Shown here: positions 1 to 39,743 of the stretch, piece by piece
How positions within the stretch are numbered: the stretch's first letter is position 1
Layout of the letters: each line of letters begins with the position of its first letter
DNA from: Adhaeribacter aerolatus
GTDB taxonomy: Bacteria > Bacteroidota > Bacteroidia > Cytophagales > Hymenobacteraceae
Direction of reading: 5' to 3'
NCBI RefSeq assembly: GCF_007991635.1
Contig: NZ_BJYS01000017.1
Span: forward strand, 62,001 to 126,000
DNA length: 64,000 nt
Notes under the pieces: generated by a model
Database searches by the model: none
Seen by the model: only the letters and a program-made list of their open reading frames with translations
Told to the model about the DNA's origin: nothing
Translations under genes and position numbers: made by a program

Positions 1-107
1 AAAAAAGATAATGGTTCCGGCTCCAACCATTCTTTGTTACAGGCCGCCTGTACCAGCATCGTTACCGTTAGAATAATCCGGGTAATTTTTATTTTTAAGT
101 GTCTCAT
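1..107 (-). CDS. SusD/RagB-type lipoprotein, 5' end only
   Basis: This is the first 35 codons of a gene that runs off the left edge. It starts at an ATG (minus strand, position 107) 28 bases after the stop of the upstream SusC gene. The predicted N-terminus is basic, then hydrophobic, then ends in a lipobox-like VQAAC followed by NKEWLEPEP. That is the usual start of a SusD outer-membrane lipoprotein (Cys lipidated, then a short Asp/Glu/Pro-rich linker). SusD proteins cap the SusC transporter and bind the oligomeric substrate at the cell surface. Identification rests on position after SusC plus the lipoprotein signal, because the TPR body is outside the window. Confidence 0.85.
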   Translation of the reverse strand, partial: MRHLKIKITRIILTVTMLVQAACNKEWLEPEPLSF

Positions 108-135
108 CGTATTTCGGATCAATATTGGGGTAAGA

Positions 136-3100
136 TTATAAAGATAAATTCAGACCAAGAGTAAACGTTTGCGGCATAGGGGTCATGCCCGACTCCGGGT
201 CCCATCCCGGCCATTTATCAAAACTGTACAGGTTCCGGATGGCCCCCATAATGCTCAAAGAATTCATTTTGAGCCGTGCCGTAACGGCAGTTGGTACGGC
301 ATAAGCCAGCGATATATCCTGAATGCGTACAAAAGAAGCAGGTTTGTATATGCCCAACCCACCACCGTAAGCCGAGTGGATGGGCCGCAAGCGGGCATAA
401 TCGTTGTTCCGGTTCTCGGGGGTCCAGTACGGCATCGGGCCGCCATCGTAGTTGCGCCGGTCGTGCGATAAGGAGCCTTGCAGGGCCTGATTAAACGGCA
501 AAATATGGCCCAGATCGCCACGCACAAATACCGAAGCAGTAAAGTTTTTGTACGTGAAATCGTTGCGGAAGCCCAGATTATACCGGGGCGTGGTATAGCC
601 GATAAATTGCTTATCAATCAGGTCGGTATATTTACCATCGTTGTTCACGTCTTCGGCCTTAAAATCGCCCGGCGACATATTGTATACTTTGGCGGCTTCT
701 TTATCTTCTATTTGCCATATCCCTGTAACATCATAGTCCCAAACTACATCTACGGCCTGACCGGGGAACCATTGATTAGAAAAATCGGGTAACTCCCCCG
801 TGCGGGTTTCCCCTAATAAGGTATATTGGCCCTGGTCGCCAAAGAGCGATTTTATTTTATTGCGGTTCAGCGAAAAAACAAAATCTGAACTCCAGTTAAA
901 GTTTTTGGCATTAATATTTACCGTTCGGAGGTTTAGCTCAAAGCCCCGGTTTTCCAGTTCGCCCAGGTTGGTGGTAATATTTCTGAAACCGGTAATGGTA
1001 GGCAGTATCCGGTTCATGAGCATATCGGTGGTAGTACCCACGTAGTAATTGGCGCTCACGTCTAGCCGGTTTTTAAATAATCCAAGGTCTACTCCCAGGT
1101 TTATTGAGGTGGTTTTTTCCCAGACCAAACCCGGATTAGATAACCTTGTATTTTCTACCCCAACATCAATCTTAGAACCATTGTAATCGATAACTGAGCC
1201 TAGTTGAGCCAGGGCAGAATAAGCGCCGATTGCCCGGTTGCCGTTTACGCCCCAGGACAATCTGAATTTAAGGCGGTTTACGAGCCAGTTTTCGTTAAAA
1301 AAATCTTCGTCAGAAATTTTCCAGGCAAAGGCAGCGGCCGGAAAGTACGCCCAGGGTTGTTCCTGTCCGAATGCCGAGTACCCGTCTCTTCTTAAAGAGG
1401 CGGTAAATAAATATTTATCTAGTAAAGTATAATTTACCCTGCCCATCAGGGCGTCGCCGGTTTCCTTTGTATCGGTATTATTTAAAGACGGATTGCTGCC
1501 AAATTGCAGACCATGGTAGCTCAGGTTCGGATTAGGCGAAAAGTTTTGATTGGCTTGCAGTTCCGACCAACTGCTGTACTTTTCGATGTTGTACAAGAAA
1601 GTTAAATCAATCTGATGCATCTTGAATTGTTTGTGCCAGCTTAATAAATTATCTACCATCCATTCGCTGGTTTTATCGTTCTGCCGGGTGCCCCGCCCAC
1701 CCGGAAAGGTTTGGGTTCCGGTGATGGTTTGGTCGCCCCAGAAATTTCGTTCGGTGGCAAACGAGTACCGCGGCTGAAACGAGAGTTTATAATTAATGCC
1801 CAATGGCAATTTTACGTTGGTGTATAAACTGGAAAACAAGGTGTTAACTTTCCGTTCCCGATCCTGCCCGTAGTAATTCATCAGCGGATTATAGGCGCTG
1901 GGGTCATCATGGGGCCGGAGGTTGATTCGGCCGTCTGCATTATACATTTCGCCGAACGGGCTGGCAATGTACATCAAAGACAAATCGGCCGGTACCGCAC
2001 TTTCGTCGCGCTCGCTAAACTGTGTATTTGCCCCTACCGATAACCAATCCGTAATCTTAAAATCAACATTCAGCCGCGACCGGATTGCCGCATATTTATC
2101 GCCACGGATGATACCTTCATTATTTACATAACCCACCGACCAGAAATAACGGATATCCTCAGTACCACCCCCGATGCTCAGATCATAGGTTTGTCTTATC
2201 CCCTTCGCCATCACCCTGTCGTACCAATCTTCGGTTTTGCCGGCCAGGGCATTTTTTTGTTCGGTAGGATATAAGTTTAAGCGTTGTAAATATTCGGTAT
2301 AAGCATCGGCATTGGGGTTGCGATTATAATTTAACCACTCCTGCAGGCTTACATTATCAGGAAGTTTGTTTGGATTGGTATAGAAGTGTTTCGGGATAGA
2401 TGGATTGTTAATCGCCCCCTCAGCGAAGTAGTCGCCCCGAAAAGTAAGAAATTCTTCGGCACTTAGTGGTTTACGATCTTTGGTAGGCTGAGACACGCCG
2501 AGTCGGGTAGAAAAATTAATGGTAGGTTTCCCTTGCTTGCCTCTTTTGGTAGTAATAATTATTACTCCGGAGGCGGCCCGGGCACCATATACCGCCGATG
2601 AACTGGCATCTTTCAAAATATCAATTGCTTCAATGTCATTCGGATTAATATCGGAGAGGCTCCCATTGTATATTACCCCGTCCAGTACAATCATAGGCGA
2701 AGTATTGGCACTTAAAGAAGTACGCCCCCTGATTTCGAGCGAGCTACCGCCGGCGGCAGTGGCGCTTTGGTTAGCATTAAGCCCCGCTATCGTACCGGTT
2801 AGCATATCGGTTAGCTGGGTCATGGGCTGGTTCTTGAAAGTTTCGGCATCCACCCGTTCTACCGAACCGGTTAAATCACTTTTTTTCTGGGTTCCGTAGC
2901 CAATTACCACCACTTCGCTTAGCTGGGCCAGGTCGGGCGTCAGGCTAATATTTATTACCGTTAGATTTTTTACCGGAACTTCCTTTTTAAGGTAACCCAC
3001 ATAACTTACTACCAGCACGGCCTCCTGACCGGGCGCTTCGAGCGTATATTGGCCAGCGGCATCCGAAGCCGTACCGGTACTGGTACCTTTCAGCATAATG

Positions 3101-3330
3101 TTCACGCCCGGCAAAGGGTCACCGGAAGCAGCATCGGTAACTCGCCCCGTAATGGTTTGCCTGGCTTGCCAAACCACCGAGGCGCTTACACCAGCCTGTG
3201 CCTTTAAGAAGAATGTCAGAAAAAATAACAAAGCCAGCTTTATTTTTGAGCCCTTGTTAGCGCTAAATAAAAGATACAAGCTTGCAGTACCGGATGATTT
3301 ATCTCCTGCTGGTTGGTAGTAATATGCCAT
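136..3330 (-). CDS. SusC/RagA-family TonB-linked outer-membrane transporter (set 1)
   Basis: A 1064-residue TonB-dependent importer. After an N-terminal hydrophobic signal (about residues 30-48) there is a carboxypeptidase-regulatory-like domain (ITGRVTDAASGDPLPGVNI, about 59-130), a TonB-box-like EVVVIGYGTQKK, the plug domain (about 150-265) and a 22-strand barrel ending in an aromatic-poor TLGLNLSL. It would import an oligomeric substrate together with the SusD partner that begins just downstream at position 107. Its start codon lies 112 bases from a LacI-type palindrome at 3442-3455, so it is probably part of the LacI regulon. It is shorter in signature and clearly distinct from the duplicated pair at 26058-34159. 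The substrate cannot be read from sequence. Confidence 0.95.
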   Translation of the reverse strand: MAYYYQPAGDKSSGTASLYLLFSANKGSKIKLALLFFLTFFLKAQAGVSASVVWQARQTITGRVTDAASGDPLPGVNIMLKGTSTGTASDAAGQYTLEAPGQEAVLVVSYVGYLKKEVPVKNLTVINISLTPDLAQLSEVVVIGYGTQKKSDLTGSVERVDAETFKNQPMTQLTDMLTGTIAGLNANQSATAAGGSSLEIRGRTSLSANTSPMIVLDGVIYNGSLSDINPNDIEAIDILKDASSSAVYGARAASGVIIITTKRGKQGKPTINFSTRLGVSQPTKDRKPLSAEEFLTFRGDYFAEGAINNPSIPKHFYTNPNKLPDNVSLQEWLNYNRNPNADAYTEYLQRLNLYPTEQKNALAGKTEDWYDRVMAKGIRQTYDLSIGGGTEDIRYFWSVGYVNNEGIIRGDKYAAIRSRLNVDFKITDWLSVGANTQFSERDESAVPADLSLMYIASPFGEMYNADGRINLRPHDDPSAYNPLMNYYGQDRERKVNTLFSSLYTNVKLPLGINYKLSFQPRYSFATERNFWGDQTITGTQTFPGGRGTRQNDKTSEWMVDNLLSWHKQFKMHQIDLTFLYNIEKYSSWSELQANQNFSPNPNLSYHGLQFGSNPSLNNTDTKETGDALMGRVNYTLLDKYLFTASLRRDGYSAFGQEQPWAYFPAAAFAWKISDEDFFNENWLVNRLKFRLSWGVNGNRAIGAYSALAQLGSVIDYNGSKIDVGVENTRLSNPGLVWEKTTSINLGVDLGLFKNRLDVSANYYVGTTTDMLMNRILPTITGFRNITTNLGELENRGFELNLRTVNINAKNFNWSSDFVFSLNRNKIKSLFGDQGQYTLLGETRTGELPDFSNQWFPGQAVDVVWDYDVTGIWQIEDKEAAKVYNMSPGDFKAEDVNNDGKYTDLIDKQFIGYTTPRYNLGFRNDFTYKNFTASVFVRGDLGHILPFNQALQGSLSHDRRNYDGGPMPYWTPENRNNDYARLRPIHSAYGGGLGIYKPASFVRIQDISLAYAVPTAVTARLKMNSLSIMGAIRNLYSFDKWPGWDPESGMTPMPQTFTLGLNLSL

Positions 3331-5351: not shown

Positions 5352-5439
5352 GATGCTTTGATTTTAAATCTTTCCTTTTGTGCATTATTATTCCGGGGAT
5401 ATATTTTTATACCCAAACACCGGCGGAAAGATCCGGGAA

Positions 5440-6840
5440 TTATTTTGTTTTTACGTTGTTTGAGGCGGCCGGCGCTACGCCGATTTGCCTGGCTAAACCG
5501 GTCATGCCGGTTAAAATAACTTCCTCCAGACCGGGCGCCCAGGTCGTATGCAAACCGTAAGCCCGCTGCGAAGTTTCTCCTTCGTAACCGCCCTCTTGTA
5601 ATATTTTCTCCGAAGGAATGTAAGACATCACATCGTTGGAATAACCTAACACAAAAGTATTAAGCCCGAATATTTGTTTTAGGCGAATGGCATATTCTAT
5701 CACCAGTTCCCCGCCCAGGGCCAGCATTACCTGGTCGCCGAGTTGCCAAACCTGTAAGGGATAAGGATATTGGGTCCGGAACGGTTTTCCCTTTTTCATT
5801 TCGGCCAGCATGCGGGTAGCCCAGCGCTTATAATAATCCACGTTGGTTTCACTGATTAATTGGTTCAAGGCTGCTTCGGTAGGCGGATTGCCCAGTGGTA
5901 AATCTACTTCGGTGTAAGCCGTTTTAATGTTTGCCGACAATACGCGCATGTCTTCTTCCAGTACCCGGTTTACGGCTGCTGCCAACTCCCGCCCGTATTG
6001 CCGGGCCAGCGATTCGGTGCCCCGGGGCAAGGGATTTTGGTCGGCGCCGGCGCTTTGGAAAAACATGGCGGTTACGCCCGGATGAAATTTTTCGAGTTCT
6101 GCCTGGGCATAGCCCGGATAATCGCCCGACCATTTGTAATCGTTCAGCACGGTAGGATGACAGGCATAACCGAAAGCAATGGCCTTTAATTTTCCTTTGG
6201 TATTTACTACTTTAAAAACCGGTACGGCGTAATCGTTGGGGCCATTGAGTTCGGTTTGCTGCAGCAGTGCAGCCTCGCGGTTGTTGCGCCGGTTTACCTG
6301 AAAACGGGTAACCCCATTTTGGGCATAAAGCTGCACCGGCTCCATGGCTTTAAGCGCCGTTCCAACCAATCCGACTAATTGCTCCTCCAGTTTTCGGGTA
6401 TACTCGGGTACTTTTTTCCATTCGGCCGCATTCATGGGGTAAACATCCGATAAGGCATTACCCACCACCGGGGCCGAGTGCGTATGGGAGCTATTTAATA
6501 ATACCTGGGCTTTGGCCAGGCCATATCGGGCCTGCAACTGCTTCCGGATATTATCTGATACGTCTTTGGGTAAGCCCAGCAAATCGATAGTTACCAGCAC
6601 AGCTTTCTGGCCATTGGCATCTTCTATAACCAGCGCTTTGGCCCACAACTCCAGGCGGGTGCCCTCCGATGGCTTCGTCCGGACACCATACCCAGCCATC
6701 CACATGGGTTGTTTGGGAGTAATATTTACCCGGGCCACCCCCGCTTTCCAGTCAGTTGCCGCCGGCGTGATAAATCCATAGGTTACCTGAGCTTGAAGTA
6801 AAGGAAATACAAAAACCAGGAGCAGGATGACATTCTTCAT
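5440..6840 (-). CDS. Secreted neutral/alkaline ceramidase-like hydrolase
   Basis: A 466-residue protein with a Sec signal (hydrophobic residues 4-17). It has the neutral/alkaline ceramidase N-terminal fold (PF04734): AGYG at 49-52, SHTHSAP at 118-124, ACHPT around His228, GGEL with Glu378, and GYSND with Tyr400. These match the family's His/His/Glu/Tyr zinc ligands. The ceramidase nucleophile hexapeptide GDVSPN is replaced by GADQNP at 265-270, so the serine is missing. The protein is also shorter than true ceramidases (about 650 or more residues) and lacks their C-terminal domain. It is therefore probably a zinc amidase-like enzyme acting on something other than ceramide (inference). Its ATG overlaps the stop of the upstream aminotransferase by 4 bases, so the two are translationally coupled. 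Confidence 0.85.
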   Translation of the reverse strand: MKNVILLLVFVFPLLQAQVTYGFITPAATDWKAGVARVNITPKQPMWMAGYGVRTKPSEGTRLELWAKALVIEDANGQKAVLVTIDLLGLPKDVSDNIRKQLQARYGLAKAQVLLNSSHTHSAPVVGNALSDVYPMNAAEWKKVPEYTRKLEEQLVGLVGTALKAMEPVQLYAQNGVTRFQVNRRNNREAALLQQTELNGPNDYAVPVFKVVNTKGKLKAIAFGYACHPTVLNDYKWSGDYPGYAQAELEKFHPGVTAMFFQSAGADQNPLPRGTESLARQYGRELAAAVNRVLEEDMRVLSANIKTAYTEVDLPLGNPPTEAALNQLISETNVDYYKRWATRMLAEMKKGKPFRTQYPYPLQVWQLGDQVMLALGGELVIEYAIRLKQIFGLNTFVLGYSNDVMSYIPSEKILQEGGYEGETSQRAYGLHTTWAPGLEEVILTGMTGLARQIGVAPAASNNVKTK

Positions 6841-8234
6841 ATTTTAGCGGCTTTCTTTATTTTATCGGCATTTTTATGGGTTTTCTCAATAGCTGCCGCA
6901 ATAGCCGACATATCGGATTTGGTCCCGAGCAATAAATTCTGGGTAAACCACACGGCTTCTTCGTTACAGATGCGGTCGTTTTCCGGACATTTATTCTGCT
7001 CTAAATATTTGTTATAATCAAGCATTTCTTTCGGGTAAATTTTCTGGTAGTTTTTCGATTGAAAAACTTCTTTCAGGAAAGGCTGATTATTAAGTGTAGT
7101 ATAGCCGCTGGCGCACGGAATACCTTCGGCCCGCAGTGCTTTCAGGAAATCTTCGCGCGACAAGCCTTTAAAATCTTCTTTTTTATACCGGAAGGCAAAA
7201 AGGTGAAAGGCGCCCCTGGTTACATTGTCGTATAATTTATAAGGTATAATGCCCGGTATATTTTCTATTTGTGATTTCAGGTAAGCCGCATTCTGGTTGC
7301 GGGTAGTCGTTTGGGCATCCAGGCGCTTTAACTGAGCCAGCCCGATGGCGGCCTGGTATTCGGTTAAACGCACCTTCGTACCTTCCCGGATGCTGCCGGT
7401 ACCCACCGAACCGACTACACTGCCGTAAGGCAAACCTAAATTCTGGTAAGAAAAACAGCGGTCCATAAAGGCATCGTCGTTGCTCACAATAGCCCCGGCT
7501 TCGCCGATAGGCAAATTTTTAGAATTCTGGAAGCTGAAACAGCCGGCGTGGCCGATGGTACCTACCTTTTTACCGTTTATTTCTGCTAAATGCGCCTGGC
7601 AGGCATCTTCTATTACCACCAGGTTGTGCTTTTTAGCAATGGCCATAATCCGGTCCATATCGGCTGGTAATCCCAGAATGTGTACCGGCAAAATGGCTTT
7701 CGTACGGGGGGTAATTTTAGCTTCTATTTTGGCCGGATCCATCTGAAAGGTTTGGGGATCAATATCTACAAATACCGGCATGGCCCCATTGGCAAGTACC
7801 GCCTGCACCGTAGCGATAAACGTATAAGGCGGCACCAGCACCTCATCTCCTCCCCTGATATTAAACTGATTTAGCGCGACAATTAAGGCATTGGTGCCAT
7901 TGGCAACGGCTAGGCTACGTTTAGCGTCCAGGGCCGCCGCCCACTCTTTTTCGAATTCCGTAACCACTGCAGCCCGCGACCATACCCCGCTCCGCAGTAC
8001 TTCGAGTACGCGTTTCTCGTCGGTTTCGGGGTTCCAAACCGGCCATTTGGGCCACTTGCGGGTATCCCAGGCGGCCGGGCCACCCAAGATAGCGGGCGTT
8101 TGGGCAGCTTTGTTAATACTGGCAAATAAAGAAGGTACCAGGCCCAAACTCAGCGCCGAACCAATGCTGGCCAGTGAGCTTTGCTTGATAAAGGCGCGTC
8201 GGGAAAAATTCTTTTTAAACATATTTTTCTGCAA
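6837..8234 (-). CDS. Tat-exported DegT/DnrJ/EryC1/StrS-family PLP aminotransferase (copy 1)
   Basis: A 465-residue fold-type I PLP enzyme of the sugar aminotransferase (DegT/StrS) family. The family motifs are NGTNAL at 112-117, PPYTFIAT, VIEDACQAH with the pyridine-binding Asp210, and SFQNSKNLP with the Schiff-base Lys239. Unusually for the family it begins with a twin-arginine signal (SRRAFIKQ, RR at 12-13, then a hydrophobic stretch to about residue 40), so the folded PLP-loaded enzyme should be exported. It is the first gene of an operon with the ceramidase-like and propeller genes. A LacI-type operator at 8355-8368 lies 121 bases upstream. The direction of transamination and the substrate are unknown. 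A second copy lies at 16103-17452. Confidence 0.9.
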   Translation of the reverse strand: MQKNMFKKNFSRRAFIKQSSLASIGSALSLGLVPSLFASINKAAQTPAILGGPAAWDTRKWPKWPVWNPETDEKRVLEVLRSGVWSRAAVVTEFEKEWAAALDAKRSLAVANGTNALIVALNQFNIRGGDEVLVPPYTFIATVQAVLANGAMPVFVDIDPQTFQMDPAKIEAKITPRTKAILPVHILGLPADMDRIMAIAKKHNLVVIEDACQAHLAEINGKKVGTIGHAGCFSFQNSKNLPIGEAGAIVSNDDAFMDRCFSYQNLGLPYGSVVGSVGTGSIREGTKVRLTEYQAAIGLAQLKRLDAQTTTRNQNAAYLKSQIENIPGIIPYKLYDNVTRGAFHLFAFRYKKEDFKGLSREDFLKALRAEGIPCASGYTTLNNQPFLKEVFQSKNYQKIYPKEMLDYNKYLEQNKCPENDRICNEEAVWFTQNLLLGTKSDMSAIAAAIEKTHKNADKIKKAAKI

Positions 8235-8771
8235 TTATTGTTTAACGCTTTCTTCGGGTAAGTTGTAGTAAGGTTATAAACCAATTAAAGCTGGGACGAC
8301 TGTTCTAATCTTTTAGCCCTTGTATTTACTTATAGAGCTCCAAATGCGTATTTTCGGGTGCGTGCCCGGACACACGGATATATTTATCAACTCGGGACCG
8401 GAACAATGGGTATTGTTAGTTCTTCCGGAATAATCTTAACCGGAGAAATAATATTGGATGATTTAACCAACTCTTTATTCTTGAATAAAAAACTTCCGGT
8501 AACGTACCCGATAATAGATAAAATATTTTGAATATAAAAATGTATTTGTGTAAATATTTTATTGTAGCAAACAACATTGGCATCAAATACCTTAAAAGCA
8601 ACTTTTATTTAAGGTTTTTACCTCTTTTTTGGAGAGAAAAAAGTATTAATATCTGCCTTTTTCCGAGCCTCTTCAATTAGTTTCGAGGCAACTTTGCAAC
8701 CTAACTTGTTTGTCCTTCCGTTCCTGATAATGCACGTTTTAAGGTGCTTTCGTTTTTGTTGGCGAATGATA
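8235..8771. other. Intergenic region with operator, otherwise empty
   Basis: About 540 bases between the aminotransferase start and the lipoprotein stop. It holds the operator at 8355-8368. From about 8430 the sequence becomes noticeably more AT-rich, as in the neighbouring lipoprotein gene. I see no supported gene here; a 74-codon minus-strand frame (8618-8842) overlaps the lipoprotein gene and is not convincing. Confidence 0.5.
8355..8368. promoter_or_regulatory. Candidate LacI-family operator, copy 2
   Basis: CGGGTGCGTGCCCG, a near-palindrome with central CG, flanked by TTTT and GGA. It lies 121 bases upstream of the aminotransferase/ceramidase-like/propeller operon. Confidence 0.65.
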
Positions 8772-26047: not shown

Positions 26048-26057
26048 GGCCAAGTAA

Positions 26058-29501: not shown

Positions 29502-30980
29502 TTAATTGTAGTTATCGTTTTGCACCAGTACGCCTGGGTTGGCCTGCTCTATTTCCCGGTTCGGGATTGGGAAAAATTTGTAATGCGGCTGGGGCTGCAA
29601 GTTTTGTTTTGAAGCCGTTTTAGTATCGTAGTTGTAGTCGGTTTCAACCTGGGTCAGTTCGGCTATCAACCGGCCGGTTCTCACCAAATCGAACCAGCGC
29701 TGGTTCTCAAAAGCCAGTTCTAACCGGCGCTCCAGCAAGAGCTTATCTAAAAAAGCTTCCGGAGTAGCGATATCGGCCAGGGTATAATTGTGCGAAGTGT
29801 TGCCAAAAGCCCGCTCGCGAATGCGGTTCAGTTCTACCAAAGCCTGCTGGGGCTGATTCAACCGGTACAGTACCTCGGCTTTTAACAAAACCAAGTCGGC
29901 GTAGCGGATTACCGGCAGATCGAGCCCGGCGGCGTTCTGGGTGTGCTTTACGCTGTATTTGCTGATGTAGGGTTTCCACACCAAAGGGGCGTTGGCCGGC
30001 GCATCCGGCGATTTATAAAACTCCGTAATAGTGGCTGCTTTGCGGGTATCAGTCTCCTCGTACAGTTTATGCAAATCCCACGACGGAAAAGCGCTTTCGT
30101 TGCCCCGCGGCGCAATATTACTCACGCCAAAGTAAGGCAGAAAATCGCTGGACATGGGTTGGCCATTGGTGCCGTCGATGTATTTAATGGCAAATACCAG
30201 TTCGTTATTATCTTCGTTTTCCAGCTTCCACAAAGCGGCAAAATTCGGCAACAACTGGTAACCAAATTCCGGAAGCATGTCCAGGTAGGTTTTGGCATTA
30301 GTCCAATCCTGCCGGAAAACATAAACCTTGCTTAGCAAAGCCACAGCAGCCCCTTTGCTGGCCCGCCCTTTGGCTATTTCGGTTTTGCCCGGTAGGTTGG
30401 CAATGGCATCTTTTAAATCCGAAATTACCAGGTCATAAATTTCGGCTTCCGTGGCCTTTGGCACCGCCTTCGATTCCTGGCTGGTCAGAACCGTGGTTAT
30501 TTTGGGTACCCCGCCGAACATCCGCACCAAATCAAAATAAAATAAGGCCCGCAAAAATTTAGCCTCGCCGGTTAGCTGTTCTTTTTGCTTGGGTTTGTAA
30601 TCGGTGGGTATATCTATTTTGGATAGTACCATATTAGCCCGATAAATGCCATTATAGGTTTCGGTCCACATGGCACCGAACAAAGGATTTTCGGAGGTAA
30701 AAGCCAGGTTATTTACTTCAGGCAAGCCCCCGATGTTAAAATAACCAGTCATGTGCATATTATCGGTGGGCATTTCGAGCATGGCCCAGTCGCGGGGCAG
30801 GCGGGCCTGGTAGCGGCTGTAAATGCCTAAGGTGGCCCCTTCCAGGTCCTGAGCGGTTTTGTAAAAATTACCTTCCGTCAGAATAGACTGCGGTACCAGG
30901 TCAATAACCTCGTCGTTGCAGGCGCCTAAACTTATAGCCAGGGCCAATAAACCTATATTCAAATATGGATGCTTTTTCAT
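29502..30980 (-). CDS. SusD/RagB-family nutrient-binding lipoprotein (set 4)
   Basis: A 492-residue SusD homologue: lipobox SLGAC followed by NDEVIDLVPQSIL, TPR segment AKFLRALFYFDLVRMFGGVPK, and the C-terminal RYADLVLLKAEVLYRL...ELAFENQRWFDLVRT. It is the duplicate of 24572-26047. The stretch between about residues 255 and 330, which in SusD proteins often lies near the ligand site, differs more between the copies (LPYFGVSNIAPRGNES against LPFGGKTGISSAGLEG). This is compatible with a changed ligand preference. Confidence 0.94.
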   Translation of the reverse strand: MKKHPYLNIGLLALAISLGACNDEVIDLVPQSILTEGNFYKTAQDLEGATLGIYSRYQARLPRDWAMLEMPTDNMHMTGYFNIGGLPEVNNLAFTSENPLFGAMWTETYNGIYRANMVLSKIDIPTDYKPKQKEQLTGEAKFLRALFYFDLVRMFGGVPKITTVLTSQESKAVPKATEAEIYDLVISDLKDAIANLPGKTEIAKGRASKGAAVALLSKVYVFRQDWTNAKTYLDMLPEFGYQLLPNFAALWKLENEDNNELVFAIKYIDGTNGQPMSSDFLPYFGVSNIAPRGNESAFPSWDLHKLYEETDTRKAATITEFYKSPDAPANAPLVWKPYISKYSVKHTQNAAGLDLPVIRYADLVLLKAEVLYRLNQPQQALVELNRIRERAFGNTSHNYTLADIATPEAFLDKLLLERRLELAFENQRWFDLVRTGRLIAELTQVETDYNYDTKTASKQNLQPQPHYKFFPIPNREIEQANPGVLVQNDNYN

Positions 30981-31000: not shown

Positions 31001-34000
31001 TTAGAAATTAACGTTTAAGCCTAAGGCAACGGTCCGGTTCAGGGGCTCTGAGCCATTGTTGAAACCCGGCATACTGTTAATGCCGGTAATTTCGCCGCCG
31101 GTATACCCTTCGGGGTTATAGCCGTGGAATCCCCGCTTTGTCAGCATCAGGGCATTGCTCATGGTCAGGTAAACCCGTAAATTATTCATCCGCATTTTTT
31201 GGGCGATAGCTGCCGGAAACTGATAACCCAGGTTCACGTTCCGGATAGCCAGAAAAGAAGCATCTTCGAGATAAAAGTCACTGTTGGAGACGTAAGCCAA
31301 AGCGCTCAGGGCCGTGGCCGGCTCTTTTCCGTTGCCGGGTTCTGCTTCGGACCACCATTGGTTTTCTACCAAAGACCGCCGCATGGCACTTACGGTGGCG
31401 CCCTGGTAATATAAGTTTTCGAGGTTGTACATTTTAGCGCCCAAAGAAGCCTGCATCATAATGCTTAGGTCAAAGTTCTTATAGGCGAAATCGTTTACCA
31501 TTCCCAAAATCAGCTTTGGCTGAAAATTGCCCAGGATTATTCGGTCCGCCGGCGTAATTTTGCCATCGTTATTCGTATCCTGATACTTGGCATTGCCGGG
31601 CCGGGAGCCAGGCAGCGTGGGCGAATTAGCTATATCTTCGGCATCCTGCAGTACCCCAATGGCTTTATAGCCATAGTAAGAAAAGGCCGGCTCTCCTACT
31701 CGTAACAACCAGCTCATGCCGCGCGTGTGGGTATTGATAATTTCGTTTACACCACCCAAATCAACCACTTTATTGCGGTTGCGGGTAACGTTAAAAGCAG
31801 TAGACCAGGTTAAAGCGCCGGTTAAGTTTTTACTGTTTAATTCCAGTTCTATGCCTTTATTATTTACCACGCCAGTATTAACCAGGGCATTGGTAAAGCC
31901 CGAAACCGAAGGTACCGAAACATTGTACAACAAGTCGTCGGTGTTTTTATCGTAATAATCTAATACTACATTAAGGCGGCTGTTAAACAAGCCTAATTCC
32001 AGGCCAATATCATAGCTTTTGGTTCTTTCCCAGCGCAGGGTTGGGTAACCCAGGGTAGTCTGGGCCTGCCCTTTGGTTAGTATACCGTTAGGCGCGTAAT
32101 ATACATCGCTGATATTACCAAAGTAGCCGAAATCGGTTATGTTGAAATTGCCCACCACCCCGTAGCTGGCGCGCAGCTTCAGGTCGCTGATAACCGGTAG
32201 GTCCTGTATAAATTCTTCCTGGGAAACCCGCCAGGCCGCCGAGGCTGACGGGAAGTTACCCCACCGGTTATTGGGCCCAAACTTAGAGCTGCCATCGGTC
32301 CGGAACGAAGCAGCCAGCAAATATTTATCGCGGAAGCTATAGTTGATGCGGCTGAAATACGAAGCCAGTCCCCACTGCGATTTGGTAGTACGGGTGGTAG
32401 TAGGTGAAATAACGGCGTTATTCAGGGTACGGATGGCTTCGTTGCCGAAGCTGCCGGCCAGCACCCCCATAGCGGCCAAACGGGAGGTATTTTTCTGGAA
32501 AGAGGCGCCCGCAATGGCACTGATATAATGGATATCGTTAAAGGATTTGGTATAGCTGAATACGTTTTCGTTGAGCAGGTTGATGTTGGTAGCATCGGAA
32601 GCCGAACCATTGTTTAAGCCATTTGAATTGGCCGAGGCTTTGGAATAATTCTCAGCCGTGGTAAAGGTAACGTTGCCGCCCAGCGAGGTTCTGAAAGTTA
32701 AATTTTTTAAAATATTCAGGTTCACAAAAGCTTCCCCAATGGTGTTCATGGCATCGGTAGTATTCGTAGTACCTTCCAGCGTGGCCAAAGGGCTTACCTG
32801 GGCCGAAACCGAGGAACCCCAATAATCCAAAGGTTTGGGATAGGTGCCATTGGCATTGCGCACCGGCGAAACAAAAGGCGATGTTTTCACCAGGGCTTCC
32901 ATGGATAAGGGAGCCGTGCGGCGGATAGAATAATTTGGATTGACCATAAAGCCGGTACTCACAACCGAATTTATTTTTAAATCCAGGTTTGCCCGCAGCG
33001 AGTAATACTTGTAGCCGGTATTCAGCAGAGTTCCTTTTTCATCGCGCAGCGTACCCGACACATAATATTTGGCATTATCGGTACCGCCTGCCACTGAAAG
33101 GTTATAATTCTGGATGGGCGCCGGTTTAAGCAACACTTCTTCCCAAACCGTATTTCCTTCTTTTACCACCGGGTTTACCTGGTATTGGGCCGGCCGGCGC
33201 ACATCGCCCCACAACGGAATAGTAGGATCGCCGCCGGCCCAAACGAACTCGCGGTTATGGTACCGGGCTACATAATCGTGAAACTCCTGGCCGGTTATCC
33301 AATCGTCATGGCCAATGGCGCGGGCTACACCGGTGTATGCGTTAAAATTGAGCTGCGGCTTGCTGGACTTACCTTTTTTGGTGGTAACAATAATAACCCC
33401 ACCGTTGCCCCGGGATCCGTAAATAGCCGCCGAAGAAGCATCTTTCAGCACTTCAATGGATTCCACGTCGTTCATGTTTACGTTGTCGAGGCTACCGCCC
33501 GGAAACCCATCTATTACGACCAATGGGTCGTTGCTGGCGCTGATTGAACCGGCTCCCCTTATCCGGATAATGGGCGAGGCGCCCGGCGTGCTGCGGTTAG
33601 TAGAAATATTCACTCCGGACAAGCGACCCACCAATGCCGTTTCGGGCCGGGCTACCGGTATCTGGTCCAGTTTGTTGTTTTCAATTTTAGATACCGCCGC
33701 CGTTACCGAGCTCTTCTTGACGGTGCCATAGCCAATAACCACCACTTCATCCAGCTGCGCCTGATTCGGCGCTAAACTTACCTGGAGCGTGGTCTGGCCT
33801 TTAACCGGTATTTCCTTCTTTAAATAGCCTACAAAAGTAAACACCAGCACCGCCTCGGAATGGGCCACCTCCAGACTGTAATTACCGCCAGCATCGGTGG
33901 TGGTACCTAAATTGGTACCTTTTAACACAATGCTTACGCCCGGCAAAGGCTCGCCGTTATCGGCATCGGTTACCCGCCCGGTAACCGTTTGTAACTTTCG

Positions 34001-34159
34001 GACCGGAATAGCCGCGAAAGTTACTGCCGGATAAATAAATGCAACCAGTGATATAAATAATACCAGCAGCGCCAGCGAAGGCTTACCGGCTAGAAATGGT
34101 ACTGGAAATTTTCTGGCAAACGGCGTTAGCGCCTGCCAATCGGGGTAGCGTTTTTTCAT
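31001..34159 (-). CDS. SusC/RagA-family TonB-linked outer-membrane transporter (set 4)
   Basis: A 1052-residue TonB-dependent importer: signal around residues 25-50, carboxypeptidase-regulatory-like domain (VTGRVTDADNGEPLPGVSI), LDEVVVIGYGTVKKSSVTAA, plug and barrel ending NRTVALGLNVNF. It is the first gene of the duplicated block. Two LacI-type palindromes lie upstream (34307 and 34462), the distal one merged with a promoter. That leaves a leader of about 300 bases with the second operator inside it. Confidence 0.95.
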   Translation of the reverse strand: MKKRYPDWQALTPFARKFPVPFLAGKPSLALLVLFISLVAFIYPAVTFAAIPVRKLQTVTGRVTDADNGEPLPGVSIVLKGTNLGTTTDAGGNYSLEVAHSEAVLVFTFVGYLKKEIPVKGQTTLQVSLAPNQAQLDEVVVIGYGTVKKSSVTAAVSKIENNKLDQIPVARPETALVGRLSGVNISTNRSTPGASPIIRIRGAGSISASNDPLVVIDGFPGGSLDNVNMNDVESIEVLKDASSAAIYGSRGNGGVIIVTTKKGKSSKPQLNFNAYTGVARAIGHDDWITGQEFHDYVARYHNREFVWAGGDPTIPLWGDVRRPAQYQVNPVVKEGNTVWEEVLLKPAPIQNYNLSVAGGTDNAKYYVSGTLRDEKGTLLNTGYKYYSLRANLDLKINSVVSTGFMVNPNYSIRRTAPLSMEALVKTSPFVSPVRNANGTYPKPLDYWGSSVSAQVSPLATLEGTTNTTDAMNTIGEAFVNLNILKNLTFRTSLGGNVTFTTAENYSKASANSNGLNNGSASDATNINLLNENVFSYTKSFNDIHYISAIAGASFQKNTSRLAAMGVLAGSFGNEAIRTLNNAVISPTTTRTTKSQWGLASYFSRINYSFRDKYLLAASFRTDGSSKFGPNNRWGNFPSASAAWRVSQEEFIQDLPVISDLKLRASYGVVGNFNITDFGYFGNISDVYYAPNGILTKGQAQTTLGYPTLRWERTKSYDIGLELGLFNSRLNVVLDYYDKNTDDLLYNVSVPSVSGFTNALVNTGVVNNKGIELELNSKNLTGALTWSTAFNVTRNRNKVVDLGGVNEIINTHTRGMSWLLRVGEPAFSYYGYKAIGVLQDAEDIANSPTLPGSRPGNAKYQDTNNDGKITPADRIILGNFQPKLILGMVNDFAYKNFDLSIMMQASLGAKMYNLENLYYQGATVSAMRRSLVENQWWSEAEPGNGKEPATALSALAYVSNSDFYLEDASFLAIRNVNLGYQFPAAIAQKMRMNNLRVYLTMSNALMLTKRGFHGYNPEGYTGGEITGINSMPGFNNGSEPLNRTVALGLNVNF

Positions 34160-34306: not shown

Positions 34307-34320
34307 CGGTAGCGTACCCG
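34307..34320. promoter_or_regulatory. Candidate LacI-family operator, copy 4 (promoter-proximal leader)
   Basis: CGGTAGCGTACCCG, with the right half CGTACCCG intact and central CG. It lies 148 bases upstream of SusC set 4 and about 155 bases (centre to centre) from the site at 34462, a spacing compatible with looping. Confidence 0.6.
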
Positions 34321-34461: not shown

Positions 34462-34503
34462 CGGTAACGTACCCGAATATAGAAAAGAAAAGATCTATTT
34501 CAA
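34462..34503 (-). promoter_or_regulatory. Promoter with overlapping LacI-type operator (SusC set 4)
   Basis: The operator CGGTAACGTACCCG is at 34462-34475. On the minus strand, TTG (34501-34503), 19 bases and TATATTCG (34474-34481) match the Bacteroidota promoter except TTCG for TTTG. The final CG of the -7 element is the first CG of the operator. Confidence 0.65.
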
Positions 34504-35374: not shown

Positions 35375-36436
35375 TTAATTCCGGTAAAAGGCGTAATTTT
35401 CTTTGGTTACAATATCAATCGGCATAAAATAAGCCTTTTCGATGGGGGCTTGCTGCACAATTTTATTGTACAAGGCCATAATACCCCGGTAACCTTGCTC
35501 CTGGGGCTTCTGACAAATTAAAAAATCGATGGTTCCCTTCTTTAAGTACTCAATATTTTCGTTTAAGAAGTCAAACCCAATCAATAACTTATCCTGAATA
35601 CTGCTTTCTTCTATAAAATGGGCCACGTAAGAAACCCGCGAGTTGGTTACAAAAATGGCCTTTACATCTTTTTCTTTGGTGAGGATTTTAGCTAAATTCT
35701 TTTTAATTGATTTGTAATCGGTCTTACGGATATCTATCTTGACAATCTCTTTGTTAATGTTATTCTTTTGAAAATAGGTTCTGAACCCTTCCTCTTTCCG
35801 CAACAGGTGGTGGTGATTATCTATTTCTTTGGAAATATTAACGAGTAAAATTTTGCCGGATTCGAACAAATAATTGATCAGGTGCCCGGCCAGGTAACCG
35901 GTTTGAAATAAATCCGGGCCGATAAAACTCAGGCTTTCCTGGTTAGGAATATCCGAATCGATGAAAATATAAGGAATATTACGCTTCTGAAGTTCTTTGG
36001 TAAATGCAATAGATTCTTCTATAAAAGAGGGTGCCAGCAAAACACCATCTAAATTGCCTTTCAACAATACCTGTGTTTGCTTTACAAAAGAACTTTTATT
36101 GTTCAGGTCGAAAAAATATTTATCCAGTTTAATCCCGTATTGTATAATTTCTGCTTCGGCTTGCTCGATGCCGTTTAGCGGAGCCTGCCAAAAATCTGTT
36201 TCGTTGGAAATTTGGGGAATTAAGATAGCAAATTGAATAGCCTTGCGCGAAGCCAGTCGGCGGGCCAGCAAGTTAGGCTGGTAATCTAGTTCCTGGATAA
36301 TGCTATTTATTTTTTCCTTGGTCTTTTCCGAAACCCCGGTTCGGTTATGAAGAACTCTATCTACGGTGGCAATCGAAACATTGGCTCTTCTGGCTATTTC
36401 TTTTACACCAACTAACTCTTCTTCAACTTTCTTCAT
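35375..36436 (-). CDS. LacI-family transcriptional regulator
   Basis: A 353-residue LacI/GalR regulator. The N-terminal helix-turn-helix contains ARRANVSIATVDRVLHNRTGVS (residues 14-35). The hinge helix has the minor-groove leucine in PNLLARRLASRKA, which goes with operators that have a central CG. The C-terminal periplasmic-binding-type domain (from about residue 65) contains FAILIPQISNETDFW and FIFIDSDIPNQ. The type I substrate-binding fold suggests a free sugar-like effector rather than a sugar phosphate. It stands alone between the duplicated SusC/SusD block and the nagB genes. Six palindromes with central CG in the locus are its likely targets. No copy was found in front of the gene itself. 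Confidence 0.93.
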   Translation of the reverse strand: MKKVEEELVGVKEIARRANVSIATVDRVLHNRTGVSEKTKEKINSIIQELDYQPNLLARRLASRKAIQFAILIPQISNETDFWQAPLNGIEQAEAEIIQYGIKLDKYFFDLNNKSSFVKQTQVLLKGNLDGVLLAPSFIEESIAFTKELQKRNIPYIFIDSDIPNQESLSFIGPDLFQTGYLAGHLINYLFESGKILLVNISKEIDNHHHLLRKEEGFRTYFQKNNINKEIVKIDIRKTDYKSIKKNLAKILTKEKDVKAIFVTNSRVSYVAHFIEESSIQDKLLIGFDFLNENIEYLKKGTIDFLICQKPQEQGYRGIMALYNKIVQQAPIEKAYFMPIDIVTKENYAFYRN

Positions 36437-37390: not shown

Positions 37391-37425
37391 AAAGCCTGCT
37401 AAGTTCTTAAAACCCAACAGGCTTT
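37391..37425 (-). terminator. Intrinsic terminator downstream of nagB copy 1
   Basis: AAAGCCTG (37391-37398) and CAGGCTTT (37418-37425) form an 8-bp stem. On the minus strand the second arm is followed by a run of T. It lies 104 bases after the NagB-like stop at 37529. Confidence 0.7.
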
Positions 37426-37528
37426 ATCCACCCAAAAAAATTCTTGTGGTATGCCAATGCGGGTAACTTATTTTTTTACAACTACCCGGGCAAGCGTATA
37501 GAAAGCTTTATTTAAAAGCTACTCAATT

Positions 37529-38302
37529 TTAATTCAGTAAAGAACTACTGGCTTTATCCAGAAACAAAACCGCCTGCGGGTGCCTTCTTAAAATAGTAGA
37601 CGGATACAGTTCCTGTATGTCGCTTTTTAAGGTATGGAAAACCGCTTGGGCTTTGGTTGGCCCAGGCACCATGCAAAAGACATACCGGGCCCGCATTAAA
37701 GCCGGTACAGTTAAGGTTAAAGCGTGGGTAGGCACATCGGCAATGGTGGCAAAACAGCCGTCATTTACTTGTTGCTGACGACAAGCCTGGTCCAAATCCA
37801 CTACTTTCACCAGATTTGGGTCGTTAAAATCGGCAACGTGCGGATCGTTAAAGGCAATGTGGGCGTTTTCACCAATTCCCATACACACAATATCTGCCAG
37901 AAATTCTTCCAGCAAGCCGGTATAGCGGACACACTCAGCGGTTACATCTTTGGCTAAGCCGTTAAGATAATTAACCGAACGGAAAGGTACTATGGCAAAG
38001 AGGCGGTCTTTCAGAAAATTGCCGAACCGTTGCGGCGCCTCTTCCGGCAAGCCGACGTATTCATCCATGTGAAAGGCATTGATGCGTTCCCAGGCAATAT
38101 TCTGATTGGCTACCAGGTTTGCTAAAAATTCGTTTTGGGAAGGCGCTGCGGCAAAAATAATATTAACATACTCCTGCTGGTCGAGCAACGCGCTTATTAC
38201 CTGACCGGCGGCGACCGCTGCCTCCGCTCCCATGGCGGACCGGGTTTCGTAAATCTTAACTTCTAAATTTTCTGTGGTTACTGCATTTAGCATATTGGCC
38301 AT
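37529..38302 (-). CDS. Glucosamine-6-phosphate deaminase-like protein (copy 1)
   Basis: A 257-residue NagB/6-phosphogluconolactonase-fold protein. NagB converts glucosamine-6-phosphate to fructose-6-phosphate and ammonia in the cytoplasm. FHMDEYVGL carries the catalytic Asp equivalent to E. coli Asp72. The second motif reads GIGENAHIAFNDP instead of GVGNDGHIAFNEP, so the positions of E. coli Asp141 and Glu148 are Asn and Asp while the His is kept. This variant motif is seen in NagB-like proteins of uncertain substrate. A start at the Met four codons in is also possible. A promoter-operator at 38774-38814 lies 472 bases upstream, and a terminator follows at 37391. Confidence 0.85.
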   Translation of the reverse strand: MANMLNAVTTENLEVKIYETRSAMGAEAAVAAGQVISALLDQQEYVNIIFAAAPSQNEFLANLVANQNIAWERINAFHMDEYVGLPEEAPQRFGNFLKDRLFAIVPFRSVNYLNGLAKDVTAECVRYTGLLEEFLADIVCMGIGENAHIAFNDPHVADFNDPNLVKVVDLDQACRQQQVNDGCFATIADVPTHALTLTVPALMRARYVFCMVPGPTKAQAVFHTLKSDIQELYPSTILRRHPQAVLFLDKASSSLLN

Positions 38303-38773: not shown

Positions 38774-38814
38774 CGGGTACGTACACGAAAATAGAGAAAA
38801 AATTCATTTATCAA
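38774..38814 (-). promoter_or_regulatory. Promoter with overlapping LacI-type operator (nagB copy 1)
   Basis: The operator CGGGTACGTACACG (38774-38787) is one base from a perfect 14-bp palindrome. On the minus strand, TTG (38812-38814), 18 bases and TATTTTCG (38786-38793) form the promoter, and its last CG is the operator's first. Confidence 0.68.
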
Positions 38815-38831
38815 AAATAATTTTGATAAAT
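38806..38831. promoter_or_regulatory. Perfect 11-bp inverted repeat next to the operator
   Basis: ATTTATCAAAA, four bases, TTTTGATAAAT. It overlaps the -33 element of the nagB promoter, so it could be a binding site for a second factor. It could also be chance AT-rich symmetry. Confidence 0.45.
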
Positions 38832-38978
38832 GTTAACTTTTTATTCTTTATTCAAATTTTTTATGTTTGCTAAGGCTGGTGTTTTAGTTGCAGACTGCCA
38901 GGTGAGGCATAGGTTACGCCTGTTAAAATAATCAAATAATAAAAAAATGCTGCTTTACCGAGACAGGCAACCAGCCGT

Positions 38979-39743
38979 TTATGCTTTCCCGGTCTTAGCC
39001 AGTACCCCGGCTGAAAGCAAGGAGGCAGAAGCTTCGTCGAGGTAGTAATGGCAATTAGGGTGTAACTGTAAAATGCTGGCCGGGAATAGGTTACTTACTG
39101 GTTTTTCAAGACAGTTTTGCACGGCGGCAGCTTTGCGGCTTTCGGGTACCGCGCAAATGATGTGCTTTGCCTTCATTATCTGTTTTACCGACATGCTGAT
39201 GGCGCTGTTGGGCACTTCGTCGATAGAATTAAACCAACCCTCCTTCCATTGCTGCTGGCGGCACTGCTCATCTAAATCAACTATTAAGTAAGGTTGCTCG
39301 GTATCAAAATCGGCCGGCGGATCATTAAAGGCCAGGTGCCCGTTCTCTCCTACCCCAACCAAGGCTACCGCTATCGGATGAGAACTGATAATATTACCTA
39401 AGCGCTCACATTCGGCCTGGGGGTCATTTTCACCGTTTATTAAAAAAGTAGCTTGCAGCGGAGGTACTTTGTCTAAGAAGCGTTCTTTCAGGTATTTCCG
39501 GAAGCTGGCTTTTGCGGTTTCCGGCAGGCCAATATATTCATCCAGGTGGAACATGGTTACTTTACGCCATTCAATATCTGGTTCAGAAATTAGCTGGTTC
39601 AGGGTTTCGAACTGGCTGGTACCGGTTGCCAATATTATATTGGCATAGCCCTGGCCCGCAATAGATTCCCGTATTAAGGCCGCCGCTTTGCTTCCGGCTA
39701 GCTTGCCAAGTTCGCCGGGATTTTTCAGTACGCTAATTTCCAT
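38979..39743 (-). CDS. Glucosamine-6-phosphate deaminase-like protein (copy 2)
   Basis: A 254-residue NagB-family protein, a divergent paralogue of 37529-38302. FHLDEYIGL has the catalytic Asp. The second motif is GVGENGHLAFNDPPADF, again Asn for Asp141 and Asp for Glu148 of E. coli NagB. The pattern DLDEQCRQQQ is shared with copy 1 (DLDQACRQQQ). No N-acetylglucosamine-6-phosphate deacetylase (NagA) gene accompanies either copy in the window, so if the substrate is acetylated the deacylation must be done by another enzyme. The ceramidase-like or amidohydrolase proteins are candidates (inference). Confidence 0.87.
   Translation of the reverse strand: MEISVLKNPGELGKLAGSKAAALIRESIAGQGYANIILATGTSQFETLNQLISEPDIEWRKVTMFHLDEYIGLPETAKASFRKYLKERFLDKVPPLQATFLINGENDPQAECERLGNIISSHPIAVALVGVGENGHLAFNDPPADFDTEQPYLIVDLDEQCRQQQWKEGWFNSIDEVPNSAISMSVKQIMKAKHIICAVPESRKAAAVQNCLEKPVSNLFPASILQLHPNCHYYLDEASASLLSAGVLAKTGKA

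What the first reader, a model, noticed from the sequence alone, without database searches (positions are those of the whole stretch)
1..39743. A large locus for an unidentified, probably N-acylated amino sugar or aminocyclitol
Four SusC/SusD systems surround two Tat-exported sugar aminotransferases, two nucleophile-less ceramidase-like zinc proteins, two amidohydrolases, a secreted alpha/beta hydrolase, a MurQ-like etherase, two variant NagB proteins and both a LacI and a DeoR regulator. There are no glycoside hydrolases at all in this 40 kb, which is odd for a polysaccharide locus and suggests a small or unusual imported compound. A coherent but unproven scheme is uptake, deacylation by the zinc proteins, PLP chemistry outside the cytoplasm, then etherase and deaminase steps inside.
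Basis: partly seen in the sequence, partly recalled or inferred. Interest (0 to 1): 0.75.

Follow-up and report, generated by a model that had tools for sequence, protein, structure and literature searches.

The report
LacI-controlled exported amino-sugar processing locus
A bacterium carries a large nutrient-scavenging gene cluster in which enzymes of a kind normally used inside cells to build amino sugars are instead exported and paired with ceramidase-like zinc proteins, apparently to take apart an N-acetylated amino sugar.

Summary
The cluster continues about 14 kb left: a third Tat-DegT, sulfatase, DUF1080, RidA, a HiPIP-like protein, DUF7133. The Tat-DegT / PF04734 pair is conserved: in 395 sampled Bacteroidota genomes the same six carry close relatives of both, and it recurs in Planctomycetota, Verrucomicrobiota and Acidobacteriota. 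In the DegT1 clade a third protein (4011-5351) usually accompanies it. Zinc ligands are kept in 56 of 56 homologues; the ceramidase serine in 0 of 55. A LacI-type palindrome (CGGGTACGTACCCG) precedes the DegT1, amidohydrolase, SusC4 and NagB1 genes, and also a gene run on contig C55 with NagA, a NagP-like permease and two Gfo/Idh oxidoreductases, genes that lie beside DegT1 in Dyadobacter. So 2-acetamido-hexosamine catabolism is the best-supported destination. The DegT2/MurQ/CERb/SusCD2 block has no such site and lies by a divergent DeoR: probably two regulons. Best reading: an exported oxidation-transamination-deacylation system feeding NagA/NagB and MurQ. Substrate and chemistry are inferred. 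Counter-cases: three relatives carry PF04734 homologues without DegT1.

The parts
1..122 (-). start of SusD1 (rest at C17:60347-62000, outside the window)
   Evidence: Pfam SusD_RagB on the outside part; ORF C17:60347-62122
136..3330 (-). SusC1, TonB-dependent transporter; close homologues shortly before DegT1 in L027, L028, L029
4011..5351 (-). PROP: protein without known domain (propeller-like only by weak hits); conserved partner of DegT1 and CERa, fused to CERa in L024 and L030; no signal peptide seen here, lipoprotein- or Sec-like starts in several relatives
5440..6840 (-). CERa: PF04734 protein with a signal-like start, zinc ligands kept, Asn269 in the serine column; overlaps DegT1 by 4 nt
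6837..8234 (-). DegT1: twin-arginine DegT/DnrJ/EryC1/StrS PLP enzyme, Lys239 and Asp210 kept
8355..8368 (.). operator-like palindrome before DegT1 (2 mismatches to CGGGTACGTACCCG)
8497..8510 (.). second operator-like palindrome before DegT1 (2 mismatches)
8772..9314 (-). small lipoprotein-like ORF, no Pfam family
9442..10548 (-). ABH: alpha/beta hydrolase (glucuronoyl esterase / AXE1-like); a homologous domain is fused to a CER-like domain in L033 and L034
10656..11480 (-). AMHb: Amidohydro_2 family
   Evidence: homologue near DegT1 in L027 and beside it in G199
11431..12384 (-). AMHa: Amidohydro_2 family with twin-arginine start
   Evidence: homologue beside DegT1 in L027, near it in G199
12606..12619 (.). 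operator-like palindrome before AMHa (1 mismatch)
12865..14805 (-). CERb: DUF6242-like stretch plus PF04734-type domain, Asn in the serine column
15161..15979 (-). MurQ-type SIS-domain etherase, second copy in the genome
16103..17452 (-). DegT2: twin-arginine DegT enzyme
17507..18193 (-). SusE-like lipoprotein (no Pfam hit), found with DegT2 in L034 and L069
18206..19957 (-). SusD2
19969..23064 (-). SusC2
23475..24224 (+). DeoR-family regulator, divergent from SusC2
24572..26071 (-). SusD3 (60% identical to SusD4)
26058..29201 (-). SusC3 (68% identical to SusC4)
29502..30980 (-). SusD4; homologue directly before DegT1 in G207
31001..34159 (-). SusC4; homologue (56% identical) before SusD4 and DegT1 in G207
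34307..34320 (.). operator-like palindrome before SusC4 (3 mismatches)
34462..34475 (.). operator-like palindrome before SusC4 (2 mismatches)
35375..36436 (-). LacI-family regulator; homologues in the DegT1 loci L018 and L029 and beside PROP-CERa in G199
37529..38302 (-). NagB1: glucosamine-6-phosphate deaminase-like
38774..38787 (.). operator-like palindrome before NagB1 (1 mismatch, 479 nt upstream)
38979..39743 (-). NagB2: glucosamine-6-phosphate deaminase-like

Best explanation
A SusC/SusD-served scavenging locus, about 54 kb on this contig, for a compound built on a 2-acetamido hexosamine. Its LacI-type regulon takes the compound through the outer membrane; sulfate and O-acyl groups are probably removed, and exported enzymes then work on it outside the cytoplasm. 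Oxidoreductases (Gfo/Idh, or DUF7133 with a HiPIP) make or reduce a ring ketone. A Tat-exported PLP enzyme of the DegT family exchanges amine and ketone, most likely removing a second amino group, with RidA hydrolysing stray imines. The serine-less zinc protein CERa probably frees the amine from its acyl group first. A NagP-like permease then imports the sugar, and NagA and NagB finish it. A sister block (SusC2-SusD2-SusE-DegT2-MurQ-CERb) does the same for a MurNAc-like sugar. Shown: gene content, conservation, catalytic residues, TatC in the genome, palindromes in both half-loci. Inferred: export of each enzyme (from its N-terminus), that LacI binds the palindrome, the substrate, the reaction of each exported enzyme, and their order.
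For: DegT1 (E<=1e-100) and the PF04734 profile A3 (E<=1e-80) hit the same 6 of 395 Bacteroidota genomes, the own one included; in 5 of the 6 they lie within 5 kb, in G199 on different contigs. DegT1 clade (39 sequences, the own included, support 0.98): PF04734 relative within 9 kb in 29, PROP in 28, either in 34, Gfo/Idh or DUF7133 in 25. 26 of 99 DegT have a PF04734 start within 200 nt downstream, 11 of them overlapping by 4 nt. Dyadobacter L029 has SusC1-SusD1-LacI-Gfo/Idh-DegT1-CERa-PROP-Gfo/Idh-NagP-NagA-NagB1 in one run; here the Gfo/Idh-Gfo/Idh-NagP-NagA part (67-79% identical to Dyadobacter proteins) lies on C55. NagA passes TIGR00221 (286 and 298 bits, cut-off 225.65). GH20-like and GH109-type genes lie in the DegT1 run of G284. 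Palindrome: 8 sites at <=3 mismatches in the window against 1.81 expected, 0 of 100 shuffles reach 8; 7 of 7 sites at <=2 mismatches on own C17 plus C55 are intergenic, 128-479 nt upstream of an ORF of the locus; 0 in 150,000 control bases. PLP lysine and aspartate 99 of 99; TatC; zinc ligands 56 of 56. Tat-exported PLP enzymes have a precedent, PvdN and PtaA (PMC6206403, passages).
Against: No substrate, activity or expression data. PF04734 homologues of this profile occur without DegT1: among 39 relatives G002 (68% identical CERa beside DUF7133, HiPIP-like and SusCD), G003 and G028 (one copy broken) pass E<=1e-80 and have no DegT1 at E<=1e-90. In the other 60 DegT sequences PF04734 is near only 23. 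NagA and NagB are near only 7 (one a 116-residue fragment) and 5 of 39 DegT1 genes. PROP is near only 3 of 39 loci from outside Bacteroidota. If CERa removed the 2-acetyl group, NagA would be needless. The nearest solved DegT relatives run in biosynthesis (recalled). The palindrome was found by comparing upstream regions, so part of its agreement is by construction; no site precedes SusC1, SusC2 or SusC3; at <=3 mismatches control stretches also have a few sites. PROP lacks a signal peptide here. NagB-like proteins miss the NagB cut-offs.
Confidence: 0.5

Rival explanations
1. Aminocyclitol or aminoglycoside catabolism: DegT1 runs the scyllo-inosose aminotransferase reaction backwards on a free aminocyclitol.
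For: Top PDB profile hits for the DegT family are the 2-deoxy-scyllo-inosose aminotransferases 5w71, 2c7t and 5w70; with DegT1 alone 7b0d, named glutamine--scyllo-inositol transaminase, is first; structure search puts Fic25, AHBA synthase and BtrR first. That these act on substrates without a nucleotide is recalled.
Against: Partners NagA, NagP-like, NagB-like, GH20 and GH109-type are hexosamine genes; no inositol-catabolism family appeared in the Pfam answers for the proteins scanned.
Confidence: 0.15
2. DegT1 is a PLP lyase: after N-deacylation it eliminates the substituent next to the free amine, splitting ethers or glycosides without hydrolases; RidA clears the enamine.
For: RidA lies next to Tat-DegT in L019-L022 and in the extended locus here; no glycoside hydrolase in the 40 kb; PLP lysine intact.
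Against: Aminotransferases are the nearest relatives; dehydratases of the fold score lower; RidA is near only 4 of 39 DegT1 genes.
Confidence: 0.13
3. Peptidoglycan scavenging: the whole locus feeds on MurNAc or muropeptides.
For: MurQ lies beside DegT2 and CERb here and in L069, where a NagP-like gene and a kinase with a weak BadF hit (22.8 bits, below cut-off 31.5) follow; L034 has MurQ, MFS and such a kinase in a row. T. forsythia has a murTKQ operon (PMC5790795, passages).
Against: MurQ is near only 1 of 39 DegT1 genes, the window's own, and has no LacI-type site; a second MurK-like/MurQ pair exists on C3; no muropeptide peptidase or amidase family among the 23 ORFs scanned in 1-39743.
Confidence: 0.12
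4. A patchwork: several unrelated SusCD loci lie side by side and share no pathway.
For: Two regulators; a close DegT2 relative (E<=1e-160) in 1 of 395 genomes, the own, DegT1 in 6 of 395; SusC3/SusD3 is a near duplicate of SusC4/SusD4.
Against: SusC4/SusD4, SusC1/SusD1, LacI, NagB1, AMHa/AMHb and PROP each recur near DegT1 elsewhere, and one palindrome links several of them.
Confidence: 0.1

Closest known systems
Periplasmic PLP enzymes PvdN and PtaA (pyoverdine tailoring, Pseudomonas)
   Same: PLP enzymes exported folded through Tat and working in the periplasm (PMC6206403, passages)
   Different: Biosynthesis of a siderophore side chain; their family relation to DegT was not tested here
Gfo/Idh plus DegT couples of biosynthesis (GenD2/GenS2, NtdC/NtdA, WbpB/WbpE, GnnA/GnnB; recalled; GnnA/GnnB also in the search listing)
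   Same: An oxidoreductase of the Gfo/Idh type next to a DegT aminotransferase
   Different: Cytoplasmic and anabolic (recalled); here both carry export signals and sit with uptake and catabolic genes
Scyllo-inosose aminotransferases BtrR, RbmB (2c7t, 5w71, 5w70) and Fic25 (8gyj)
   Same: Fold; about 30% identity; aligned PLP region
   Different: Antibiotic biosynthesis, no Tat signal (recalled)
Neutral ceramidases 2zws and 4wgk
   Same: Fold of the N-terminal part and the zinc ligands
   Different: 466 against 646-688 residues, serine replaced
NagP-NagA-NagB GlcNAc pathway and MurT-MurK-MurQ MurNAc pathway
   Same: NagA equivalog, NagP-like permease, NagB-like and MurQ-type enzymes
   Different: Extra DegT, PF04734, PROP and oxidoreductases ahead of the known steps
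3-keto-glycoside pathway with DUF1080 (BT2157, CCNA_01705; PMC9007349, passages)
   Same: A DUF1080 protein in the extended locus and oxidoreductases in its second half
   Different: DegT and PF04734 are not named in the passages seen

Membership tests
Polysaccharide utilization locus (SusCD type) | SusC/SusD pairs | tested here: met
   four pairs
Polysaccharide utilization locus (SusCD type) | glycan-cleaving CAZymes in the locus | tested here: not met
   no GH or PL family among 23 ORFs of 1-39743; sulfatase and DUF1080 only outside the window
DegT/DnrJ/EryC1/StrS aminotransferase | PF01041 over cut-off and PLP lysine/aspartate | tested here: met
   332, 308 and 281 bits; Lys 99 of 99, Asp 99 of 99
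DegT/DnrJ/EryC1/StrS aminotransferase | transaminase activity on a keto sugar | not testable with these tools
   needs enzyme assay
Neutral ceramidase | zinc ligands His97, His204, Glu411, Tyr448 (names recalled) | tested here: met
   equivalents invariant in 56 of 56
Neutral ceramidase | catalytic serine | tested here: not met
   0 of 55 Ser in that column
Neutral ceramidase | equivalog NF041649 | tested here: not met
   29.6 bits against cut-off 1200
N-acetylmuramic acid 6-phosphate etherase (MurQ) | family models over cut-off | tested here: inconclusive
   PRK05441 324 over 168, PRK12570 281 over 255, but TIGR00274 271.5 under 302
Glucosamine-6-phosphate deaminase (NagB) | equivalog cut-off TIGR00502 | tested here: not met
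   NagB1 117.4 and NagB2 143 bits against 236.9; PF01182 met (54.1 and 64.1 over 27); in NagB1 the Glu of FNEP is Asp
[quoted passage not shown]
   TIGR00221 286.4 over 225.65; the narrower PRK11170 not met, 214 under 483
LacI-regulated regulon | palindrome before several operons plus a LacI gene | tested here: met
LacI-regulated regulon | binding of the LacI protein to the palindrome | not testable with these tools
   needs gel shift

The most novel reading that the evidence does not exclude
A catabolic sugar-aminotransferase system outside the cytoplasm: exported Gfo/Idh and DegT run the diamino-sugar biosynthesis couple backwards, and a serine-less ceramidase-like amidase first strips the second N-acyl group, so that N-acylated diamino sugars (such as 2,3-diamino-glucose of some lipid A, or bacillosamine-type sugars) become ordinary GlcNAc for NagA/NagB. 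I made no literature search for a known route that degrades such sugars.
Probability: 0.25. Interest if true: 0.8.

Novelty: new variant of a known kind. Interest (0 to 1): 0.6.

Why it matters
Sugar aminotransferases of this family are known for building amino sugars inside cells (recalled). A Tat-exported version, tied by conservation, overlapping genes and a shared palindrome to a ceramidase-like zinc protein and to GlcNAc catabolism, would mean that bacteria of several phyla use PLP chemistry outside the cytoplasm to eat modified amino sugars. It would give functions to three little-known groups (short serine-less PF04734, the 440-residue PROP, DUF7133 with a HiPIP-like protein) and a concrete regulon to test.

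Tried and rejected
Ceramide or sphingolipid as substrate: considered because of PF04734; set aside since the serine is missing and the ceramidase equivalog fails and partners are hexosamine genes. Aminocyclitol as sole substrate: kept as a rival. PROP as a known lyase: profile search of the PDB gave only weak short hits, best to designed propellers, so its activity and even its fold stay open. RidA against the PDB: no hit at E<=1e-8. Literature searches aimed at an exported DegT or its pairing with PF04734 listed nothing relevant in the held library; subscription papers and preprints are mostly not held. A phylum draw for DegT2 gave only the own genome, so the MurQ block rests on three loci (own, L069, and L034 where the parts are 16 kb apart) plus DegT2-CERb in L070. 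Dropped rows: one PF04734 'hit' in L059 is a short CER-like start of a DegT ORF and was taken out of the count (32 listed, 31 kept). Six of the 80 loci lost their DegT to my ORF filter (74 used) and were restored. In one search a weak GH20 hit in L034 (44 bits) was dropped (GH20 5 of 39, not 6 as), and the NagA of G284 proved to be a 116-residue ORF. I first took the serine to be absent in all other PF04734 proteins of this genome; on re-reading the C3 protein has Ser in that column, so the statement was changed. The one permuted palindrome of 300 that reached the observed count was the motif itself.
Full report
What is there. The window is contig C17:62001-126000 of a 6.68 Mb draft genome. 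All genes of the finding are on the minus strand except the DeoR regulator. The cluster does not stop at the window edge: to the left, up to C17:47927, lie SusD1 (partner of SusC1), an Amidohydro_2 protein, DUF7133, a small Tat-type protein, a RidA-type protein with three matched stretches, a sulfatase, a DUF1080 (3-keto-disaccharide hydrolase) protein, three more Amidohydro_2 proteins and a third Tat-DegT. The small protein is called HiPIP-like because its homologue in L019 hits PF01355. The genes scanned right of 39743 (DUF4142, sigma factor, NAD/FAD oxidoreductase, GTP cyclohydrolase, cbb3-type oxidase subunits, cupin, glutamate synthase) look unrelated.

The DegT proteins. Of 99 homologues 87 match my twin-arginine pattern; at least four of the 12 misses show an RR motif just beyond my cut, and some are truncated. 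The genome has TatC. The PLP lysine and the PLP-binding aspartate are kept in 99 of 99. A model of DegT1 (pLDDT 90.6) is closest to Fic25, AHBA synthase and BtrR; by profile the 2-deoxy-scyllo-inosose aminotransferases come first. These work on substrates without a nucleotide (recalled), which fits a protein outside the cytoplasm.

The PF04734 proteins. The CERa model (pLDDT 92.5) matches only neutral ceramidases with high probability (Foldseek E 1e-25 to 1e-27, TM 0.67-0.69 on the query). Against 2zws the zinc ligands His97, His204, Glu411 and Tyr448 correspond to His119, His228, Glu378 and Tyr407, invariant in the 56 homologues with a letter there; the serine column holds Asn in 40 of 55 and Ser in none. 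The names of the ceramidase residues are recalled; I matched them to the printed alignment by position. CERb shows the same Asn. Of the genome's three other PF04734 proteins, the two on C5 have Ala in that column and the one on C3 has Ser (alignment; these three are not among the 56). So lack of the serine marks a subfamily wider than this locus, not the whole family.

Conservation. One scan with the three DegT proteins gave 80 named loci: by title 41 Bacteroidota (Fodinibius counted there) and 39 others (a few titled only 'bacterium'). A PF04734 relative lies within 9 kb in 24 of 41 and 14 of 39 loci; PROP in 23 of 41 and 3 of 39. Many contigs are short, so these are lower bounds. CERa and PROP are one protein in L024 and L030, and a CER-like domain is fused to the alpha/beta hydrolase in L033 and L034. 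In an even draw of 395 Bacteroidota genomes DegT1 (E<=1e-100) and the CER profile (E<=1e-80) each hit 6, the same 6; without the own genome 5 and 5 (for most genomes only four first-look candidates were scored). Against this, in a separate draw of 39 relatives the CER profile at E<=1e-80 hits G000, G002, G003, G028 and G034, while DegT1 at E<=1e-90 hits G000, G007 and G034: G002, G003 and G028 have the zinc protein without DegT1 (in G002 beside DUF7133, a HiPIP-like protein and SusCD; in G028 one copy is broken), and G007, an incomplete genome, has DegT1 with a CER fragment at the contig end. In the own genome none of the eight other DegT-type hits shares a contig with a PF04734 hit, against two of three Tat-DegT with one nearby.

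Destination of the pathway. In Dyadobacter L029 the order is SusC1, SusD1, LacI, Gfo/Idh, DegT1, CERa, PROP, Gfo/Idh, NagP-like, NagA, NagB1, Gfo/Idh-like. In the own genome the Gfo/Idh, Gfo/Idh, NagP-like, NagA part (67, 71, 79 and 73-74% identical to Dyadobacter proteins) sits on contig C55 behind a 191-residue ORF of no Pfam family, with another SusCD and sulfatases further upstream. NagA passes the TIGR00221 cut-off. G284 holds NagB1, NagP-like, HiPIP-like, DUF7133, PROP, CERa, DegT1, Gfo/Idh, a GH109-type Gfo/Idh (PF21252, 142 bits) and a GH20-like protein on one strand. G207 has SusC4-SusD4 homologues, DegT1, Amidohydro_2 genes, CERa and a PQQ dehydrogenase with a cytochrome domain. A Verrucomicrobia locus (L078) has NagB, NagA, Gfo/Idh, CER, DegT and PROP.

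Regulation. Comparing 29 upstream regions gave a palindrome, CGGGTACGTACCCG. It is perfect in Dyadobacter L016, L017, L018 and L029 (the L018 site falls inside an ORF of my gene list). In the window it occurs with 1-3 mismatches at 8355 and 8497 (before DegT1), 12606 (AMHa), 34307 and 34462 (SusC4) and 38774 (NagB1); two further three-mismatch matches (26168 inside a gene, 56356 outside the locus) look like chance. It also precedes the Amidohydro_2 gene at C17:59062-60030 left of the window and the C55 run. Expected 1.81 against 8 found in the window, no shuffle of 100 as high; 31 of 35 sites at up to two mismatches over all loci lie between genes; 0 in 150,000 control bases; of 300 permuted palindromes only the one identical to the motif reached the count of 7 on own C17 plus C55. 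At three mismatches four of five control stretches of the own genome... precisely C3 (first stretch) 1, C16 2 and C25 1 also have sites, C5 and C3 (second stretch) none. That the LacI protein binds the palindrome is inferred from co-location. The SusC2-SusD2-SusE-DegT2-MurQ-CERb block has no site and is divergent from DeoR.

Mechanism. Shown: DegT with twin-arginine start and intact PLP machinery; serine-less zinc protein; co-conservation; link to NagA/NagP/NagB. Inferred: oxidoreductase and DegT act at one ring carbon, as in known Gfo/Idh-DegT couples of biosynthesis (recalled), but in the catabolic direction; CERa removes an acyl group; RidA hydrolyses imines; NagA and NagB complete the route. 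I put the whole statement at about one half and the specific diamino-sugar reading at a quarter.

Novelty. Tat-exported PLP enzymes exist (PvdN, PtaA; PMC6206403, passages). Four searches of the held library aimed at an exported DegT or its pairing with PF04734 listed no such paper; four others were on neighbouring topics.

Noticed in passing
C17:54979-59029 (left of the window; L011 14979-19029): RidA, a HiPIP-like protein and DUF7133 form a run also seen in L019-L022; DUF7133 with the HiPIP-like protein alone recurs in L025, L036, L037, L106, L118 and L122 and looks like a dehydrogenase with its electron carrier.
   Followed up: partly
window 4011-5351; L028, L034, L042, L073, L078: PROP has no signal peptide here and in Dyadobacter but a lipoprotein- or Sec-like start in several relatives and is fused to CERa in two; its compartment seems to switch.
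   Followed up: no
G000 C5:122018-128573 (L013): Two more serine-less PF04734 proteins flank a DUF7133-cytochrome c protein, a pairing of zinc protein and putative dehydrogenase without DegT.
   Followed up: partly
G000 C3:47371-48189 (L014:6996-8339): A further PF04734 protein that keeps Ser in the ceramidase column.
   Followed up: no
L059:4971-6473: A DegT ORF begins with about 50 residues resembling the tail of a PF04734 protein, perhaps a remnant of the gene order.
   Followed up: no
L110 (G028 C1:1371001-1391000): CERa and DUF7133 each split into two ORFs, apparently decayed copies.
   Followed up: no
L015, L025, L026, L108, L118, L119: Some DegT1 loci carry variable sets of a creatininase, a RidA without partner domains, an enolase-superfamily protein, a 3HCDH-type dehydrogenase and a DHDPS-type aldolase, suggesting a sugar-acid branch.
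   Followed up: partly
G000 C3:90653-92454 (L124): A separate MurK-like and MurQ pair, presumably the general MurNAc route.
   Followed up: partly
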